A DNA stretch of 64,000 bases, taken from the NCBI RefSeq assembly GCF_040546685.1, contig NZ_JBEPOH010000001.1, positions 1,426,001-1,490,000 on the forward strand, given 5' to 3'. The stretch is from Variovorax sp. OAS795. Lineage in GTDB: Bacteria > Pseudomonadota > Gammaproteobacteria > Burkholderiales > Burkholderiaceae_C. How positions within the stretch are numbered: position 1 is the first letter of the stretch; each line of letters starts with the position of its first letter. This document shows positions 6,484-11,619 of the stretch, piece after piece. The translations under genes and the position numbers were made by a program. The notes under the pieces were generated by a model. That model was not told the DNA's origin. It searched no databases and saw only the letters and a list, made by a program, of their open reading frames with translations.

Positions 6484-6774
6484 GCAAATGCAAAGCCGGC
6501 GGCCGACATCGGGGGGCGCACGCTGAGATGTCTGGTGCCCAATTCGACTCAAGCGTTCATCCCCAGGACTGTGCGTGTGGAATATGTGGCACTTCCGAAG
6601 CGAATTGCGCGCACTTATATTTGTTGACATTCCTGATCGCCTTCCGTTCCCGCTTTCGCTCCCAGAATTCGGCCACGTAGCCGCCGACCTCCGTGGCCTT
6701 CGGATCGCGAAGGCCGCAATGCTCGGAACGGATAGCCCCTGACACAGGGGGCATCTTCAGGGAGAGAAATCGTC
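6484..6774. other. 291-base gap with no supported gene
   Basis: This stretch between galM and the VgrG-like remnant has only short overlapping open frames on both strands. They lack good ribosome binding sites and show no recognisable motif. Base composition is more mixed than its surroundings, with AT-rich patches near 6610-6640. It sits at the left edge of the effector island and is most simply read as junction debris. No terminal inverted repeats of an insertion sequence were seen. Confidence 0.5.
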
Positions 6775-6900
6775 ATGTCCGCACTCAATGCTGCGCGCGC
6801 GCGCACGCTCGCCATCAGCAGCCCTGCCACCTCCGAGTTCCTGGGCTGCACCGCTCTTGAATCGGTTCGCCTGTCGGGTCGAAAAGGGGTGGACAGCTGA
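6775..6900 (+). pseudogene. Remnant of a VgrG N-terminus (41 codons)
   Basis: A short frame with a fair ribosome binding site (GGGAGAG, 10 bases upstream) encodes 41 residues: an Arg-Thr-Leu-x-Ile-Ser-Ser start, then FLGCTALESVRLSGRKGVDS and a stop. The pattern RTLxISSPA...FLGxxALxxVRLSGxEG is how one group of Burkholderiales VgrG spike proteins begins, normally followed by several hundred residues. I infer that a vgrG upstream of the adaptor gene was deleted and only its first codons remain. The stop overlaps the ATG of the DUF4123 gene (TGATG), so translation of the remnant may still couple to the adaptor. It could instead be a small real gene; an alignment would decide. Confidence 0.55.
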
Positions 6901-7868
6901 TGAACCGCCTCTATCTACAGGACGCCTTTCCCGCAGCCACGCTGGGCCTTGTCAAAGAGTGGGGGGAGCAACTGGATGCCGACGGGCTGGGGACGGACGC
7001 TACGTATGTCGTAGTCGACGGTGGCATCGCCGGGGACGCAGGCCGCCAGCGCCTGCGCGACGCCTACGGCGTTGCAACCCAGTCCTTCGACGACTCCGTG
7101 TTGGCTGACTACGAGGAATTGGGCTTGCTCGTGTGGCCCTGGCGCACGCTGCACGCCAAGGATGCGCTCGAAACCCTGCGCATCGCCTTGGCCGGCAAGC
7201 CTGGTGTCAGCTTCGTGCAGAGCCGTGCAGGACTGCCGGCGGTATGCGCCGCGCTCGCGTGGCTGGGCGCCGCCGAAACCGAGGACGGCATGCTGCTCTA
7301 CCTGCGCATCGGCGACACCCGCGTGCTGAGCAGCTTCCTGTTTCAACTGCAGCCTGCCCAGGAAGCCCGATTGCACGCCGCGGTGAGCCATTGGGCGTGG
7401 CCCGATCGCAGCGGCGGATTGAAACGCGCTGCGACAGAAGCGATGCCGCACGTGCAGCCGGCCGAAGGCAGCCTGGTGCTCGACAACGCGCAGTACGCGG
7501 CGCTGCTCGACGCAGTGGAGGCTGACATGCTGCACGCCAGCGTGCGCGCCATCGAAGCCAAGTGGATCGATGCGCGTAGCGGGAACGAACTGCACCAATG
7601 GCTGCAGACGCTGTTGCCCAGAATGCGGGCCCTGGGCATCACGCGGCCTAAAGATAAATGGGCCTTCGTCTCGCTGGCGCTGCGCGCGCCGGACGGCTTC
7701 GAGGGACTGACCGAACTGGGCGAAACCTGGCTGCGCGTGCGCAGCGGCGCCTCGGCGCTGAACGCAGAAATCTCGCAGTGGAAAGCCGGCGTGGAATGGC
7801 AAGCGATGCAGCGCCTTGCAAACGCGAATGCGGCGGCGGCCGTTGCTCCTCCCAAAGACTCTCGATGA
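6900..7868 (+). CDS. DUF4123 adaptor/chaperone of a type VI secretion effector
   Basis: The 322-residue protein has the DUF4123 pattern in its first ~130 residues: YVVVDGG near the N-terminus, a hydrophobic WPWRTLHAKDALETLR stretch, and a Leu/Arg-rich middle ending in a Trp-rich segment. DUF4123 proteins (Tap/TEC family) load a cargo effector onto a VgrG spike in the cytosol, and their genes normally sit between vgrG and the effector. Here the gene follows a VgrG-like remnant and precedes three lipoproteins and a DUF2235 lipase, which fits exactly. Its stop overlaps the next start (ATGA). Without an intact vgrG nearby it must use a spike encoded elsewhere or be out of work. Confidence 0.75.
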   Translation: MNRLYLQDAFPAATLGLVKEWGEQLDADGLGTDATYVVVDGGIAGDAGRQRLRDAYGVATQSFDDSVLADYEELGLLVWPWRTLHAKDALETLRIALAGKPGVSFVQSRAGLPAVCAALAWLGAAETEDGMLLYLRIGDTRVLSSFLFQLQPAQEARLHAAVSHWAWPDRSGGLKRAATEAMPHVQPAEGSLVLDNAQYAALLDAVEADMLHASVRAIEAKWIDARSGNELHQWLQTLLPRMRALGITRPKDKWAFVSLALRAPDGFEGLTELGETWLRVRSGASALNAEISQWKAGVEWQAMQRLANANAAAAVAPPKDSR

Positions 7869-8446
7869 CATTCATGTCGATGCCCGCCGCCATGCCCGGC
7901 GAGCGACCTTTCGGCTTGGTCGAGCGAAGCCTCGGCGTCTGCTTGCATCGATGGCTCATTGCGCTTGCCCTGCTGGCTGTGGCGCTGGGCCTTGCGGCTT
8001 GCAGTCCCAGCGCCGCGAAGCCGGTGACCGTGGGCATCACGGGCTACAACTTCACGGCCGAAGGCGTGCAGGAGTACTACGTCAACGGCATGCGCGGCTC
8101 GAACCTGCCCCCGTATGGCGGGGGCGGTTCGACATCGTGCTGCGTGTCGCTGCCTGCGAAGTGGTCGCCGGAACTGACCGTGAAGGTGAGCTGGACGATC
8201 GGGCACTACACCCGTCCATGGGGGGAAAGAAAAAACATGACGGTGCAGGAAGAGTCTGCTTGCTGTTGGCATCAACGCACCCTCAGCAAAGTCGTGTCCG
8301 TGGAGCGCTATGAGGTGGGCGGCATTGTTCAGGTGTTCTTCTTGCCTCACGACGAAATCAAGGTGTGGGTCAGTCAATACGACTTGGGTCACGAGAAACA
8401 CATCTCGGGAATGGCCTACCCCAAGAAGCCCGACACCACTGAATAA
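7865..8446 (+). CDS. DUF3304 lipoprotein, copy 1 (probable Tle1-type immunity protein)
   Basis: The frame is open further left, but the ATG at 7865 overlaps the DUF4123 stop and gives 193 residues, exactly the length of copies 2 and 3, so this start is chosen. An unusually long ~30-residue n-region is followed by a hydrophobic stretch ending in GLAAC (lipobox, Cys46), predicting a lipoprotein. The DUF3304 core contains EYYVNGMRGSNLPPYGGGGS, a CC pair, and a second CC pair near residue 133. Periplasm-facing lipoproteins encoded beside DUF2235 lipases are the expected immunity partners; that role is inferred. Its tail (after residue ~165) differs from copies 2 and 3. Confidence 0.75.
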   Translation: MTFMSMPAAMPGERPFGLVERSLGVCLHRWLIALALLAVALGLAACSPSAAKPVTVGITGYNFTAEGVQEYYVNGMRGSNLPPYGGGGSTSCCVSLPAKWSPELTVKVSWTIGHYTRPWGERKNMTVQEESACCWHQRTLSKVVSVERYEVGGIVQVFFLPHDEIKVWVSQYDLGHEKHISGMAYPKKPDTTE

Positions 8447-8490
8447 AACAAAGCAGGAGCCCCATCATGTCCGTTCAAACCATGCCCGCC
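8416..8490 (+). repeat. Gene-junction repeat, copy a (603-bp periodic)
   Basis: It spans the last 31 bases of DUF3304 copy 1, the spacer with its ribosome binding site, and the first ~24 bases of copy 2. It is nearly identical to 9018-9093 and 9621-9696, but one G shorter in the ribosome binding site (CAGGAGCC against CAGGGAGCC). Confidence 0.9.
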
Positions 8491-9048
8491 GTCTTGGTCG
8501 GCGAGCGCCCTTTCGGCTTGATCGAGCGAAGGCTCGGCGTCTGCTTGCATCGATGGCTTGTCGCGCTTGTCATGGTGGTTGCCGGGGTGGGCCTTGCGGC
8601 TTGCAGTCCCACCACAGCGAAGCCGGTGACCGTGGGCATCACGGGCTACACATTCACTTCCGAAGGCATCCAGGAGTATTACGTCAATGGCATGCGCGGC
8701 TCGAACCTGCCGCCGTATGGCGGAGGCGGCTCCACATCGTGCTGCGTGTCGTTGCCGGCGAAATGGTCGCCAGACCTGACGGTCAAGGTGGAATGGATCA
8801 CGGGTCATTGGACCGCCCCCATGGACCAGATCCAGGCAATGGACATCTCGGAGGCGATCAAGTGCTGCCTGGCACGACGCACCCTCACCAAGGTCGTCCC
8901 CGTGGAACGCTATGAGGAGGGGGGCTTAGTACAAGTTTTTTTCTTACCCAATGACGAGATCAAGGTGTGGGTGTACGACCCGGGGCCACAAAACCCCAGT
9001 CACCCCTCTCACATGGGCTACCCCAAGAAGCCCGACACCACTGAATAA
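8467..9048 (+). CDS. DUF3304 lipoprotein, copy 2
   Basis: The protein has 193 residues with start MSVQTMPAVLVGERPF and lipobox LAAC (Cys46). Its sequence is near-identical to copies 1 and 3 from residue 17 to ~108, then differs sharply at residues ~110-137 (ITGHWTAPMDQIQAM...), and is near-identical to copy 3 again from ~138 to the end. This mosaic fits duplication with local diversification. A ribosome binding site (caggagcc) lies in the 20-base spacer after copy 1. Probable periplasmic immunity lipoprotein for a DUF2235 phospholipase; it could alternatively protect against a relative of the resident effector. Confidence 0.75.
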   Translation: MSVQTMPAVLVGERPFGLIERRLGVCLHRWLVALVMVVAGVGLAACSPTTAKPVTVGITGYTFTSEGIQEYYVNGMRGSNLPPYGGGGSTSCCVSLPAKWSPDLTVKVEWITGHWTAPMDQIQAMDISEAIKCCLARRTLTKVVPVERYEEGGLVQVFFLPNDEIKVWVYDPGPQNPSHPSHMGYPKKPDTTE

Positions 9049-9093
9049 AACAAAGCAGGGAGCCCCATCATGTCCGTTCAAACCATGCCTGCC
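9018..9093 (+). repeat. Gene-junction repeat, copy b
   Basis: This is the second copy of the junction block, between DUF3304 copies 2 and 3. Copies b and c are identical for most of their length. The identity extends left into the 3' ends of the two lipoprotein genes, back to about 8925 and 9528 respectively. Confidence 0.9.
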
Positions 9094-9651
9094 GTCATGC
9101 GTGGCGTGCGACCCTTCGGCTTGATCGAGCGAAGGCTCGGCGTCTGCTTGCATCGATGGCTCGTCGCGCTTTTTATAGTGGTTGCCGGGGTGGGCCTTGC
9201 GGCTTGTGATCCCAACGCCGCGAAGCCGGTGACCGTGGGCATCACGGGTTACAACTTCACGGCCGAAGGCGTGCAGGAGTACTACGTCAACGGCATGCGC
9301 GGCTCGAACCTGCCCCCGTATGGCGGAGGCGGCTCGACATCGTGCTGCGTGTCGCTGCCTGCGAAGTGGTCGCCGGAACTGACCGTGAAGGTGAGTTGGA
9401 CGATTGGCGACTACACCCTGCCGTGGTCTAAGTTGGAACCGATGACGCCTGATGAGCGTAGCGCTTGCTGCTGGCGACAGCGCACCCTCACCAAGGTCGT
9501 CCCCGTGGAGCGCTACGAGGAGGGGGCCTTAGTACAAGTTTTTTTCTTACCCAATGACGAGATCAAGGTGTGGGTGTACGACCCGGGGCCACAAAACCCC
9601 AGTCACCCCTCTCACATGGGCTACCCCAAGAAGCCCGACACCACTGAATAA
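9070..9651 (+). CDS. DUF3304 lipoprotein, copy 3
   Basis: The protein has 193 residues and starts exactly 603 bases after copy 2. The lipobox is LAAC with Cys46, followed by Asp at +2. In Enterobacteria Asp at +2 keeps lipoproteins in the inner membrane; copies 1 and 2 have Ser there. Whether this sorting rule holds in this organism is uncertain. The variable core (residues ~110-137, TIGDYTLPWSKLEPM...) is closer to copy 1 than to copy 2, while the 3' third is almost identical at DNA level to copy 2. This is the copy immediately upstream of the effector and so the best candidate for its cognate immunity protein. Confidence 0.75.
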   Translation: MSVQTMPAVMRGVRPFGLIERRLGVCLHRWLVALFIVVAGVGLAACDPNAAKPVTVGITGYNFTAEGVQEYYVNGMRGSNLPPYGGGGSTSCCVSLPAKWSPELTVKVSWTIGDYTLPWSKLEPMTPDERSACCWRQRTLTKVVPVERYEEGALVQVFFLPNDEIKVWVYDPGPQNPSHPSHMGYPKKPDTTE

Positions 9652-9696
9652 AACAAAGCAGGGAGCCCCATCATGTCCGTTCAAACCATGCCCGCA
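9621..9696 (+). repeat. Gene-junction repeat, copy c
   Basis: The third copy lies between DUF3304 copy 3 and the DUF2235 effector gene, exactly 603 bases after copy b. It carries the shared 5' coding leader into an otherwise unrelated gene. Confidence 0.9.
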
Positions 9697-11619
9697 GCCT
9701 TGGTCGGCGAGCGCCCATTCACCCTGCTCGAACAGATGCAGCGCATCAGCGCCGCATCGTGCTTCGATGCCACGGAAAGGAGCAACATGTGCGCCTCGAT
9801 GGCTCATGTGGGCATCTTCTTCGATGGCACCAACAACAACAAGAAGCGCGACCAGGAAGATGTCAAGGATGCCAACATGCGCAGCCACAGCAACGTGGTG
9901 GTGCTGCACGATGCCTTCAAGGATGCGCCCGACGAGGGCTACTACCGCTTCTATGTTCCTGGCGTCGGCACTCCTTTCGATAAGGTCGGCGAGCCGACGG
10001 AAACACCCGATGGAAAGGCCATGGCCAAGGGCGGCGATGCGCGCATCAACTGGGCGATGATCCAGTTGCTCAATGCGATGAAACGATCGATGTGTTCGGA
10101 CGAACGACTCGTTCCCGAGGCTCAGGTTGGCGCCGATGCCATCGCCGGCCCTCTCCATGCCTCTCAGAATACCGGCAGCAACCTGGAGGGCAAGCGCCGA
10201 TACTTCGGCGGCTTGGAGAGTGGCAAGCTCAGCCAGCTCGAGCGGGTGCTCGCCGCCAAGGCCGAAGCCAAGCCGTCCAAGAAGCTGCTGCAGGTCAACG
10301 TGTCGGTGTTCGGCTTTTCGCGCGGCGCGGCGCAGGCGCGGGCCTTCTGCCATTTCGTGCACCACCTGCTGCTCAAGAAGGGGCCGGCGGGTGGCTACAC
10401 GCTCGCGGGCGTGCCGTTCCGCTTCCAGTTTCTCGGGCTCTTCGATTCGGTGGCCTCGGTGGGCATGGCCGACGCCTCGCCGTTCTGGCGCGGCCTGGGC
10501 GGCTGGGCCAACGGCACGCTGGACATCGTGCCCAGCGTGGAGCGCACGGTGCATTTTTGCGCGGCGCACGAGATACGCATCAACTTTCCGCTGTCGACCG
10601 GGCGCATCGGCGACAAGGGCTATCCGGCCAACTGCGCCGAGATGGTGTATCCGGGTGCCCACTCGGATGTGGGCGGCGGCTACGCGCCGGGGTGCCAGGG
10701 CAAGGCGGTTGGCTCGCGCACCAAGCTGCTGTCGCAGGTGCCGCTCCTGGAGATGTACCGGGAGGCGCAGCGCAGCATGGTGCCGTTGCTGACCATCGAA
10801 CAGCTCCAGAAGGTCGCAAAGGGCGATGAAGTGGCCAACGATCTGAAGATCGACCCCGACTGCGCCAGGCTCTTCAACGCCTACCGCGAATTCGTCGTCG
10901 GCTTCAGCGGCACCATCGAAGAGCAGATGCGCGGCCACGTGCAGCTGTACTGGCGCTGGCGCATGAAGTACCTGAACGATCCGACCGCGCTGCCGTCGCA
11001 TGCCAGGGCCGTCCAGCAGGACCGGATCGACATCTGCGAAAGCAATGGCGATTTTTACTCGGACATGGCCGAGGCGCTGATGCAAGTGCGAAGGGACGAG
11101 GCCCTCGCGCGGACCGCGCCCAATGCCCCTTCAGGGCTCACTCCTGCACAGCGGGACTTTCTGCGCGTACGCAGCGAAGCGATGAGACCCGATTTCCGGG
11201 TGCCCCGGGAGATCGACGAATTCTTCGACCAGCTGGTGCACGACTCCCATGCCTCCTTCTACATGGTGGGGCCGGTCACCGACTTCGACCGCAAGGAGAA
11301 GATCGCGATGATCCAGCGCAAGGTTGAATGGACGGCCAAGCGCCTGGAGGGACTGCGCAGAGGCGACGGCAGCGGGCCGCAGCCCACGAGCTACAACGAA
11401 GCCCGGCCGCTCGCGTCGTTGTCGGATCTGGAGCGCCGGATCCACGAGCACCAAACCCTGCATCAAGGCGAGTTCCCCGCGCTGACCGACGAGGATCGCG
11501 AGCAGCTGCTGGCCATGGAGACGGTGGGGACCAGCGCGGGCGTGCGGTCGGTGACCAACAAGACGCGGCGCGAGCTTGGCGGCCACGTGCGCTATCGGCG
11601 CGTGTTCGACAAGAGCTGA
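9673..11619 (+). CDS. DUF2235 (Tle1-type) lipase effector
   Basis: The 648-residue protein has the DUF2235 alpha/beta-hydrolase signature. HVGIFFDGTNNN follows residue ~40, the nucleophile elbow GFSRG carries S216, and YPGAHSDVGGGY carries H330/D332. This family includes the Tle1 phospholipases delivered by type VI secretion, which cut membrane phospholipids in a rival cell's periplasm. The start at 9673 has a good ribosome binding site (cagggagcc). The first 16 residues (MSVQTMPAALVGERPF) are shared with the upstream lipoproteins although the rest is unrelated. No signal peptide is present, as expected for a cytosolic cargo bound by DUF4123. The C-terminal ~250 residues have no feature I recognise. 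Confidence 0.82.
   Translation: MSVQTMPAALVGERPFTLLEQMQRISAASCFDATERSNMCASMAHVGIFFDGTNNNKKRDQEDVKDANMRSHSNVVVLHDAFKDAPDEGYYRFYVPGVGTPFDKVGEPTETPDGKAMAKGGDARINWAMIQLLNAMKRSMCSDERLVPEAQVGADAIAGPLHASQNTGSNLEGKRRYFGGLESGKLSQLERVLAAKAEAKPSKKLLQVNVSVFGFSRGAAQARAFCHFVHHLLLKKGPAGGYTLAGVPFRFQFLGLFDSVASVGMADASPFWRGLGGWANGTLDIVPSVERTVHFCAAHEIRINFPLSTGRIGDKGYPANCAEMVYPGAHSDVGGGYAPGCQGKAVGSRTKLLSQVPLLEMYREAQRSMVPLLTIEQLQKVAKGDEVANDLKIDPDCARLFNAYREFVVGFSGTIEEQMRGHVQLYWRWRMKYLNDPTALPSHARAVQQDRIDICESNGDFYSDMAEALMQVRRDEALARTAPNAPSGLTPAQRDFLRVRSEAMRPDFRVPREIDEFFDQLVHDSHASFYMVGPVTDFDRKEKIAMIQRKVEWTAKRLEGLRRGDGSGPQPTSYNEARPLASLSDLERRIHEHQTLHQGEFPALTDEDREQLLAMETVGTSAGVRSVTNKTRRELGGHVRYRRVFDKS

What the first reader, a model, noticed from the sequence alone, without database searches (positions are those of the whole stretch)
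7865..9651. Mosaic variable core in three tandem immunity-like lipoproteins
The three 193-residue proteins are nearly identical except at residues ~110-137, where each is different, and in copy 1's tail. Conserved flanks with a small hypervariable core suggest that this segment contacts the effector and that copies diversify while gene conversion keeps the rest alike. The cluster could be an immunity array against several related lipases.
Basis: partly seen in the sequence, partly recalled or inferred. Interest (0 to 1): 0.72.

Follow-up and report, generated by a model that had tools for sequence, protein, structure and literature searches.

The report
Shuffled immunity genes beside a phospholipase
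Three neighbouring genes in a soil bacterium encode near-copies of a protein that should protect it from a membrane-cutting toxin; they differ in two short segments that come in a few standard versions shared with other genera, which suggests an array built from exchangeable parts.

Summary
The three genes are Tli1a-family (DUF3304) lipoproteins between a DUF4123 adapter and a Tle1-like phospholipase, in a genome inferred to be Variovorax.

The variable core (residues 111-137) is not a loop mutating in place. In 28 close copies from Variovorax, Pseudacidovorax and Roseateles it falls into about five types that recur across species and genera; neighbouring copies often carry different types. 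The tail (170-189) behaves alike, and 4 of 5 core types occur with both major tails. Core synonymous sites are near saturation between window copies, which points to import by recombination.

Internal copies often begin with the effector gene's own 5' end: 16 of 33, against 1 of 23 first and 0 of 12 single copies. Arrays probably grew there.

First-copy core tracks effector patch 371-400 (partial r 0.43, p 0.0025, one of 16 tests); last-copy core does not. Effector contact is unproven: a published P. aeruginosa model puts most contacts on a loop that maps, roughly, to the conserved segment.

A known kind, with segment shuffling that my searches did not find described.

The parts
6900..7868 (+). 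DUF4123 adapter (Tla1-like chaperone) gene, 322 aa
   Evidence: PF13503 30.7 bits, cutoff 25.8; NF053803 Tla1 36 bits, below its cutoff of 200; order adapter-immunity-effector in 24 of 37 sequences (window included) and 5 of 10 loci; two loci occur in both sets and several others are cut by contig ends
7865..8446 (+). immunity lipoprotein copy 1 (W1), 193 aa, core type 5, tail type 5
   Evidence: PF11745 81.3 bits; NF053804 112.9 bits, cutoff 110 (run on residues 3-193); types
8195..8275 (+). variable core of copy 1 (residues 111-137)
8372..8431 (+). variable tail of copy 1 (residues 170-189)
8467..9048 (+). immunity lipoprotein copy 2 (W2), 193 aa, core type 1, tail type 1
   Evidence: PF11745 84 bits; NF053804 114 bits; types
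8467..8525 (+). effector-gene-like 5' leader in copy 2
   Evidence: 59 nt aligned at 88% identity to the effector CDS from its first base; the region just upstream also matches
8797..8877 (+). variable core of copy 2
   Evidence: 81% aa identity to the core of the L059 copy (another genome of the genus) against 30% and 26% to its neighbours
8974..9033 (+). variable tail of copy 2
   Evidence: identical in DNA to copy 3
9070..9651 (+). immunity lipoprotein copy 3 (W3), 193 aa, diverged core type 5, tail type 1
   Evidence: PF11745 83.9 bits; NF053804 114.4 bits; types
9070..9127 (+). effector-gene-like 5' leader in copy 3
   Evidence: 58 nt aligned at 81% identity from the effector's first base
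9400..9480 (+). variable core of copy 3
9577..9636 (+). variable tail of copy 3
9673..11619 (+). Tle1-like phospholipase effector, 648 aa
   Evidence: PF09994 81.7 bits, cutoff 27; phmmer to solved chains 9j3f (named Tle1 phospholipase) E 1.5e-62 and 4o5p (named only 'Uncharacterized protein') E 3.1e-55
10063..10152 (+). effector variable patch 1 (residues 131-160)
   Evidence: about 2.2 times mean divergence over seven close effector pairs, some sharing members
10783..10872 (+). effector variable patch 2 (residues 371-400)
   Evidence: 2.4-2.7 times mean divergence; covaries with first-copy core; includes the residues aligned with 4o5p 438-446

Best explanation
This is the immunity part of a type VI secretion Tle1 phospholipase operon (adapter, three Tli1a-family lipoproteins, effector). 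SHOWN BY SEQUENCE: the immunity genes share a conserved scaffold but carry two segments (core 111-137, tail 170-189), each from a small set of types that recur across species and genera and combine with each other; about half of the internal copies examined begin with the 5' end of the effector gene. INFERRED: a recombination between the effector's 5' end and the 5' end of an immunity gene founded the repeat, unequal crossing-over expanded it (units of 602-603 bp here, 851-860 bp in L096), and homologous exchange at the conserved flanks swapped in foreign core and tail segments. INFERRED: each lipoprotein sits in the periplasm and binds incoming Tle1; the conserved GGGG-SCC loop may give general binding, and core and tail may tune which Tle1 variant is neutralised. 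The first copy (type 5 core) is the likeliest partner of the resident effector; the added copies would guard against Tle1 variants of relatives.
For: Family and operon; three TssC genes in the genome. Discrete types: within-cluster mean identity 0.69 (core) and 0.71 (tail), between-cluster 0.38 and 0.41, at cut-offs I chose. Nearest neighbour lies in the same locus for 19 of 25 copies by flank, 12 of 25 by core, 14 of 25 by tail. AU test on core columns rejects the clade for W1-3 (p 5.5e-4) and for 5 of 6 further groups; flank columns reject none of the 7. Core synonymous difference 0.76-0.86 between window copies, against 0.24-0.44 in the whole flank and 0.10-0.34 in its N part. Effector leader: 16 of 33 internal copies, 1 of 23 first copies, 0 of 12 single copies. 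Flank distance tracks effector distance (r 0.84-0.85), core distance hardly (r 0.03-0.17). First-copy core against effector patch 2: partial r 0.43, p 0.0025; last copy r -0.01, p 0.54. 4o5p residues 438-446 align with window effector 382-390; PMC13133936 (passages) reports P. aeruginosa Tle1 438-446 contacting Tli1a in an AlphaFold 3 model. That 4o5p is this Tle1 is recalled: the listing calls it uncharacterized and the paper cites entry 6H3N.
Against: PMC13133936 says most predicted contacts come from Tli1a loop 69-92, which by domain boundaries (paper 45-155; Pfam match here 61-167) maps roughly to W3 85-108, among the most conserved segments here, not the core. p 0.0025 is one of 16 tests; two other cells also fell under 0.02 (tail/last against patch 1, 0.0115; tail/first against the conserved control, 0.0065). 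On the tree only 2 independent pairs on supported branches are available (both concordant), too few for significance. In a second clade (n = 9) patch 2 correlates but so does the conserved control (0.65 against 0.68), so it is no replicate. Type clusters overlap in range: core within-cluster minimum 0.48, between-cluster maximum 0.67. 17 of 33 internal copies show no effector leader (one of them too short to test). Core is not more divergent than flank in 9 of 26 arrays. Exceptions to the patch pairing: V172 and Roseateles. The 4o5p alignment is weak around residues 380-390. No expression or protection data.
Confidence: 0.6

Rival explanations
1. Sequential displacement, as proposed for Vibrio cholerae: new effector-immunity pairs replace the resident effector and old immunity genes stay behind as orphans; the copy next to the effector is cognate.
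For: Effector 5' remnants lie between immunity genes, as 79-96-codon ORFs in L096 and L097. The published model includes an effector remnant and immunity types shared with other strains (PMC5361080, passages).
Against: The last copy's core does not track effector patch 2. Remnants are 92-96% identical to the resident effector's own 5' end in L096 and L097. Flanks mostly group by locus and follow the effector. Differences lie inside the gene, not between whole genes.
Confidence: 0.2
2. One reading: tandem duplicates diversify in place by positive selection in the core while gene conversion homogenises the rest.
For: Flanks are alike within loci (mean 0.88 within, 0.65 between). Copies 2 and 3 share a nearly identical 3' end.
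Against: Core types recur across genera. Core synonymous sites are near saturation between window copies, and dN never exceeded dS in the 10 of 19 pairs where core dS could be estimated.
Confidence: 0.07
3. Redundancy or decay: extra copies are spare or inactive, as proposed for Tli1b of PAO1 and reported for Tli(Tox+) of V. cholerae, and the core is a tolerant surface loop with no partner.
For: PMC13133936 (passages): second copies were undetected, truncated or not protective in three species. The core holds the least conserved stretch of the family alignment and has lower model confidence.
Against: All three ORFs are intact, with flank dN/dS about 0.10-0.16 (ratios taken). Core types keep much of their sequence across genera, which a free loop should not.
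Confidence: 0.13

Closest known systems
Tli1a/DUF3304 immunity of P. aeruginosa Tle1 (PA3291, with Tli1b PA3292)
   Same: DUF4123 adapter, DUF3304 lipoproteins and Tle1 in one locus, with two tandem DUF3304 genes (PMC13133936, abstract and passages seen)
   Different: There the second copy is proposed to be a pseudogene; here three intact copies with segment-wise shuffling and effector-derived 5' ends
V. cholerae T6SS orphan-immunity arrays (sequential displacement, PMC5361080, passages seen)
   Same: Tandem immunity genes beside one effector, an effector remnant, recombination, types shared between strains
   Different: There old immunity genes shift downstream and are whole genes of different types; here copies lie upstream of the effector, on one scaffold with swapped inner segments
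Colicin/pyocin DNase immunity proteins (dual recognition; seen in a search listing only, details recalled)
   Same: Conserved binding plus variable specificity elements in related immunity proteins, the division proposed here
   Different: Unrelated toxin; here recombination appears to move the variable elements between tandem copies
rAID orphan immunity genes of Bacteroidales (PMC12247911, passages seen)
   Same: Several divergent copies of one immunity gene; predicted interface residues vary
   Different: There non-synonymous point changes read as positive selection; here types exchanged as blocks

Membership tests
Tli1a family immunity protein (NF053804 / DUF3304) | Score over the curated family cut-off | tested here: met
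   112.9, 114.0 and 114.4 bits against cutoff 110; PF11745 81-84 against 22
Tli1a family immunity protein (NF053804 / DUF3304) | Lipoprotein signal with lipobox cysteine | tested here: inconclusive
   By eye only: hydrophobic stretch then LAAC at residues 43-46 in all three; no signal-peptide program was run
Tli1a family immunity protein (NF053804 / DUF3304) | Encoded beside a Tle1-type phospholipase | tested here: met
   PF09994 81.7 bits, 21 bp downstream of copy 3
Tli1a family immunity protein (NF053804 / DUF3304) | Binds and neutralises Tle1 | not testable with these tools
   needs binding and protection assays
Sequential-displacement immunity array | Effector remnants between immunity genes | tested here: met
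   16 of 33 internal copies carry effector 5' sequence; in the window 58-59 nt
Sequential-displacement immunity array | Copy nearest the effector is its cognate | tested here: inconclusive
   covariation favours the first copy, p 0.0025, against p 0.54 for the last; 13 loci, 16 tests
Sequential-displacement immunity array | Copies in one locus come from different strains rather than from duplication | tested here: inconclusive
   core says different origins, flanks mostly say same locus
Tle1 phospholipase | Tle1 homology and serine-hydrolase motif | tested here: met
   PF09994; aligns to solved chain 9j3f, named Tle1; GFSRG at residues 214-218, its role as nucleophile elbow recalled; activity not tested

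The most novel reading that the evidence does not exclude
A bacterial allorecognition-like repertoire: Tli1a is a two-module receptor whose core reads effector patch 371-400 and whose tail reads another patch. Old core and tail types persist across genera, as in trans-species polymorphism, and tandem arrays collect combinations, so that one cell resists many Tle1 variants while keeping its own effector.
Probability: 0.25. Interest if true: 0.75.

Novelty: new variant of a known kind. Interest (0 to 1): 0.55.

Why it matters
How an immunity protein changes specificity without leaving the cell unprotected is an open question in toxin-immunity coevolution. An array of intact copies with interchangeable segments offers a route: add a copy, swap a segment, keep the original. 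The natural variants here differ mainly in defined segments of 20-27 residues on a shared scaffold, so which segment sets specificity is directly testable. The effector-derived 5' ends mark where arrays probably grow.

Tried and rejected
Positive selection in the core: not supported (10 of 19 pairs with estimable core dS, dN never above dS; 9 saturated). Plasmid carriage: no match for 8467-9651 in 72,556 plasmid records (which may leave out records near this genome). Covariation in a second clade: patch 2 correlated, but so did the conserved control, and two effectors there are split into two ORFs, so it was not used. Last copy as cognate: no signal. Solved DUF3304 structure: none by profile search; the only row was an antibody chain at E 0.59. 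First genome-contig scan with one protein confirmed no relative. Wider genus searches: 1 of 18 genomes around Roseateles (the known one) and 4 of 15 around Pseudacidovorax (the known one plus three weaker, not analysed). Dosage was considered and is not testable here.

Structure: one AlphaFold2 job on mature copy 3 read through into the effector (mean pLDDT 71.6, pTM 0.62). Copy 3 is mainly beta strands; the core is an insertion with two short helices in blocks of pLDDT 53 and 60, between blocks of 79 and 82. The tool gave no coordinates or contact confidence, so I draw no interface from it. A second job (copy 3 alone) and the PDB fold search were never accepted.

Selection and dropped rows: the close set is my choice of 29 of the 87 immunity ORFs found; the partial Aquabacterium copy was then left out (28). 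7 of 87 ORFs were left out (5 in loci duplicated elsewhere, 2 without an anchor motif). 3 duplicate loci were left out. The Dechloromonas effector was left out. Three of the 26 arrays (L063, L064, L072) mix distant copies on both sides of the effector.
Full report
WHAT IS THERE. Three ORFs of 193 codons lie at 7865-8446, 8467-9048 and 9070-9651. All three match DUF3304 (PF11745, 81-84 bits) and pass the curated cut-off of NCBIfam's Tli1a family immunity model (112.9-114.4 against 110). Upstream is a DUF4123 adapter gene (6900-7868), weakly like the Tle1 chaperone Tla1. Downstream is a Tle1-like phospholipase (9673-11619; PF09994, 81.7 bits). The genome holds three TssC genes and a second Tle1 locus with one immunity gene.

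THE VARIATION. Core (residues 111-137) and tail (170-189) differ far more than the rest. At DNA level copy 3 is a mosaic: residues 56-110 are 97.6% identical to copy 1, the core is its own, and the 3' end matches copy 2, the tail exactly.

DISCRETE TYPES. I fetched relatives from the genus (23 of 101 genomes have a match, the own genome included), other genomes of the family and class and named contigs. In a close set of 28 copies cores form five clusters and tails five at the cut-offs I chose; cluster ranges overlap (core within-cluster minimum 0.48, between-cluster maximum 0.67). Core types 5 and 2 each occur in both Variovorax and Pseudacidovorax. Copy 2's core is 81% identical to that of L059, from another genome of the genus, but 26-30% to its neighbours; copy 1's core is 67% identical to Pseudacidovorax cores. 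Of five core types, four occur with both major tails, which points to recombination between core and tail. Core columns reject the clade for 6 of 7 groups of same-locus or same-genome copies (p 6e-5 to 0.033); flank columns reject none of the 7, and 3 of those are already clades. In the flank tree copy 1 groups with a copy of L055, so the window copies are not strictly one clade even there (p 0.068). Core synonymous differences between window copies are 0.76-0.86 per site, against 0.24-0.44 in the flank; within type 1, copy 2 against L059 has dN 0.09 and dS 2.65. I read the core as replaced, not mutated in place. Over 26 arrays with two or more copies, core exceeds flank divergence in 17 and tail does in 21.

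ARRAY GROWTH. I compared effector 5' coding DNA with the region before each immunity gene's conserved domain (match means a score of at least 30 and above 200 shuffles). Internal copies matched in 16 of 33 (one too short to test counts as a miss), beginning near the effector's first codon; first copies in 1 of 23 (this window's copy 1, 44 nt); single copies in 0 of 12. L096 of Pseudacidovorax intermedius has three effector-start ORFs of 79-82 codons between four immunity genes. Founding by recombination between effector and immunity 5' ends, then tandem expansion, is my inference.

EFFECTOR SIDE. Seven close effector pairs, some sharing members, have divergence peaks near residues 131-160, 371-400 and 471-490. 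In patch 371-400 the non-synonymous difference is 0.37-0.47 in V176/OK212, V176/Vbor, K07x/V218 and W/V172, and 0.23 in Psb/Psc; the first copies of these pairs differ in core type. It is 0.12-0.18 in Vbor/OK212 and K07/Vbor, whose first copies share type 1. Residues 201-370 stay at 0.01-0.07. Over 13 loci first-copy core distance correlates with this patch after removing whole-effector distance (r 0.43, p 0.0025); last-copy core does not (r -0.01, p 0.54). 16 such cells were tested, and tail against a conserved control reached p 0.0065, so the signal is suggestive only. V172 and Roseateles do not fit the pairing. Two independent tree pairs agree, too few to test. A second clade gave no specific signal.

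STRUCTURE. By phmmer, 4o5p residues 438-446 align, weakly, with effector 382-390. That 4o5p is P. aeruginosa Tle1 is recalled; the listing calls it uncharacterized. PMC13133936 (abstract and passages) reports Tle1 438-446 contacting Tli1a in an AlphaFold 3 model, mostly through Tli1a loop 69-92. By domain limits that loop falls near W3 85-108, a conserved segment. So the effector patch agrees with my reading, but the published immunity contact does not name the core. My own fold shows the core as a helical insertion of lower confidence in a beta fold; no interface could be read.

AGAINST KNOWN SYSTEMS. Arrays of orphan immunity genes are known (PMC5361080, passages), as are tandem DUF3304 genes (PMC13133936). 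I found no report of segment-wise shuffling within T6SS immunity genes in the searches (open-licence papers only; listings seen, cut to the best 10-20; seven papers opened, at abstract or passages). The finding is a new variant of a known kind.

Noticed in passing
window 6484-6899: No vgrG ORF was found in the first 20 kb of the window, whereas 29 of the 47 sequences compared have a vgrG match, in nearly all of these just upstream of the adapter, and several of the rest are short contigs; the locus may depend on a VgrG encoded elsewhere.
   Followed up: partly
window 9205-9210: Copy 3 has Asp right after the lipobox Cys, copies 1 and 2 have Ser; by the +2 rule copy 3 might stay in the inner membrane.
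   Followed up: no
L060 (G000:C1 about 1,880,100-1,887,800): Second Tle1 locus of the same genome, with vgrG, adapter and one immunity gene of core type 2, a few kb from a TssC gene.
   Followed up: partly
L096:3150-8359: Four immunity genes separated by three truncated effector starts in Pseudacidovorax intermedius DSM 21352, repeat unit 851-860 bp.
   Followed up: yes
L071, L074, L084: In a distant DUF3304 clade the same two core versions recur in tandem copies of three genomes of the genus, apparently a second case of shared core types (seen by eye; L084 only, the others also).
   Followed up: partly
L059:6375-6935: Immunity gene fragment with a type-1-like core end and a type-1-like tail upstream of the intact copy, likely a decayed copy.
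   Followed up: no
L075:7691-9737 and L078:6561-8808: Effector matches lie in two overlapping ORFs, suggesting frameshifted effectors beside intact immunity genes.
   Followed up: no
L066:6186-7211: The ORF that runs into an immunity gene begins with a stretch holding a run of more than 20 arginine codons, a simple-repeat tract.
   Followed up: no
L098:2-1014: Roseateles koreensis immunity proteins lack the CC of the conserved loop but keep the CC of the core; the second copy of L097 shows the reverse.
   Followed up: no
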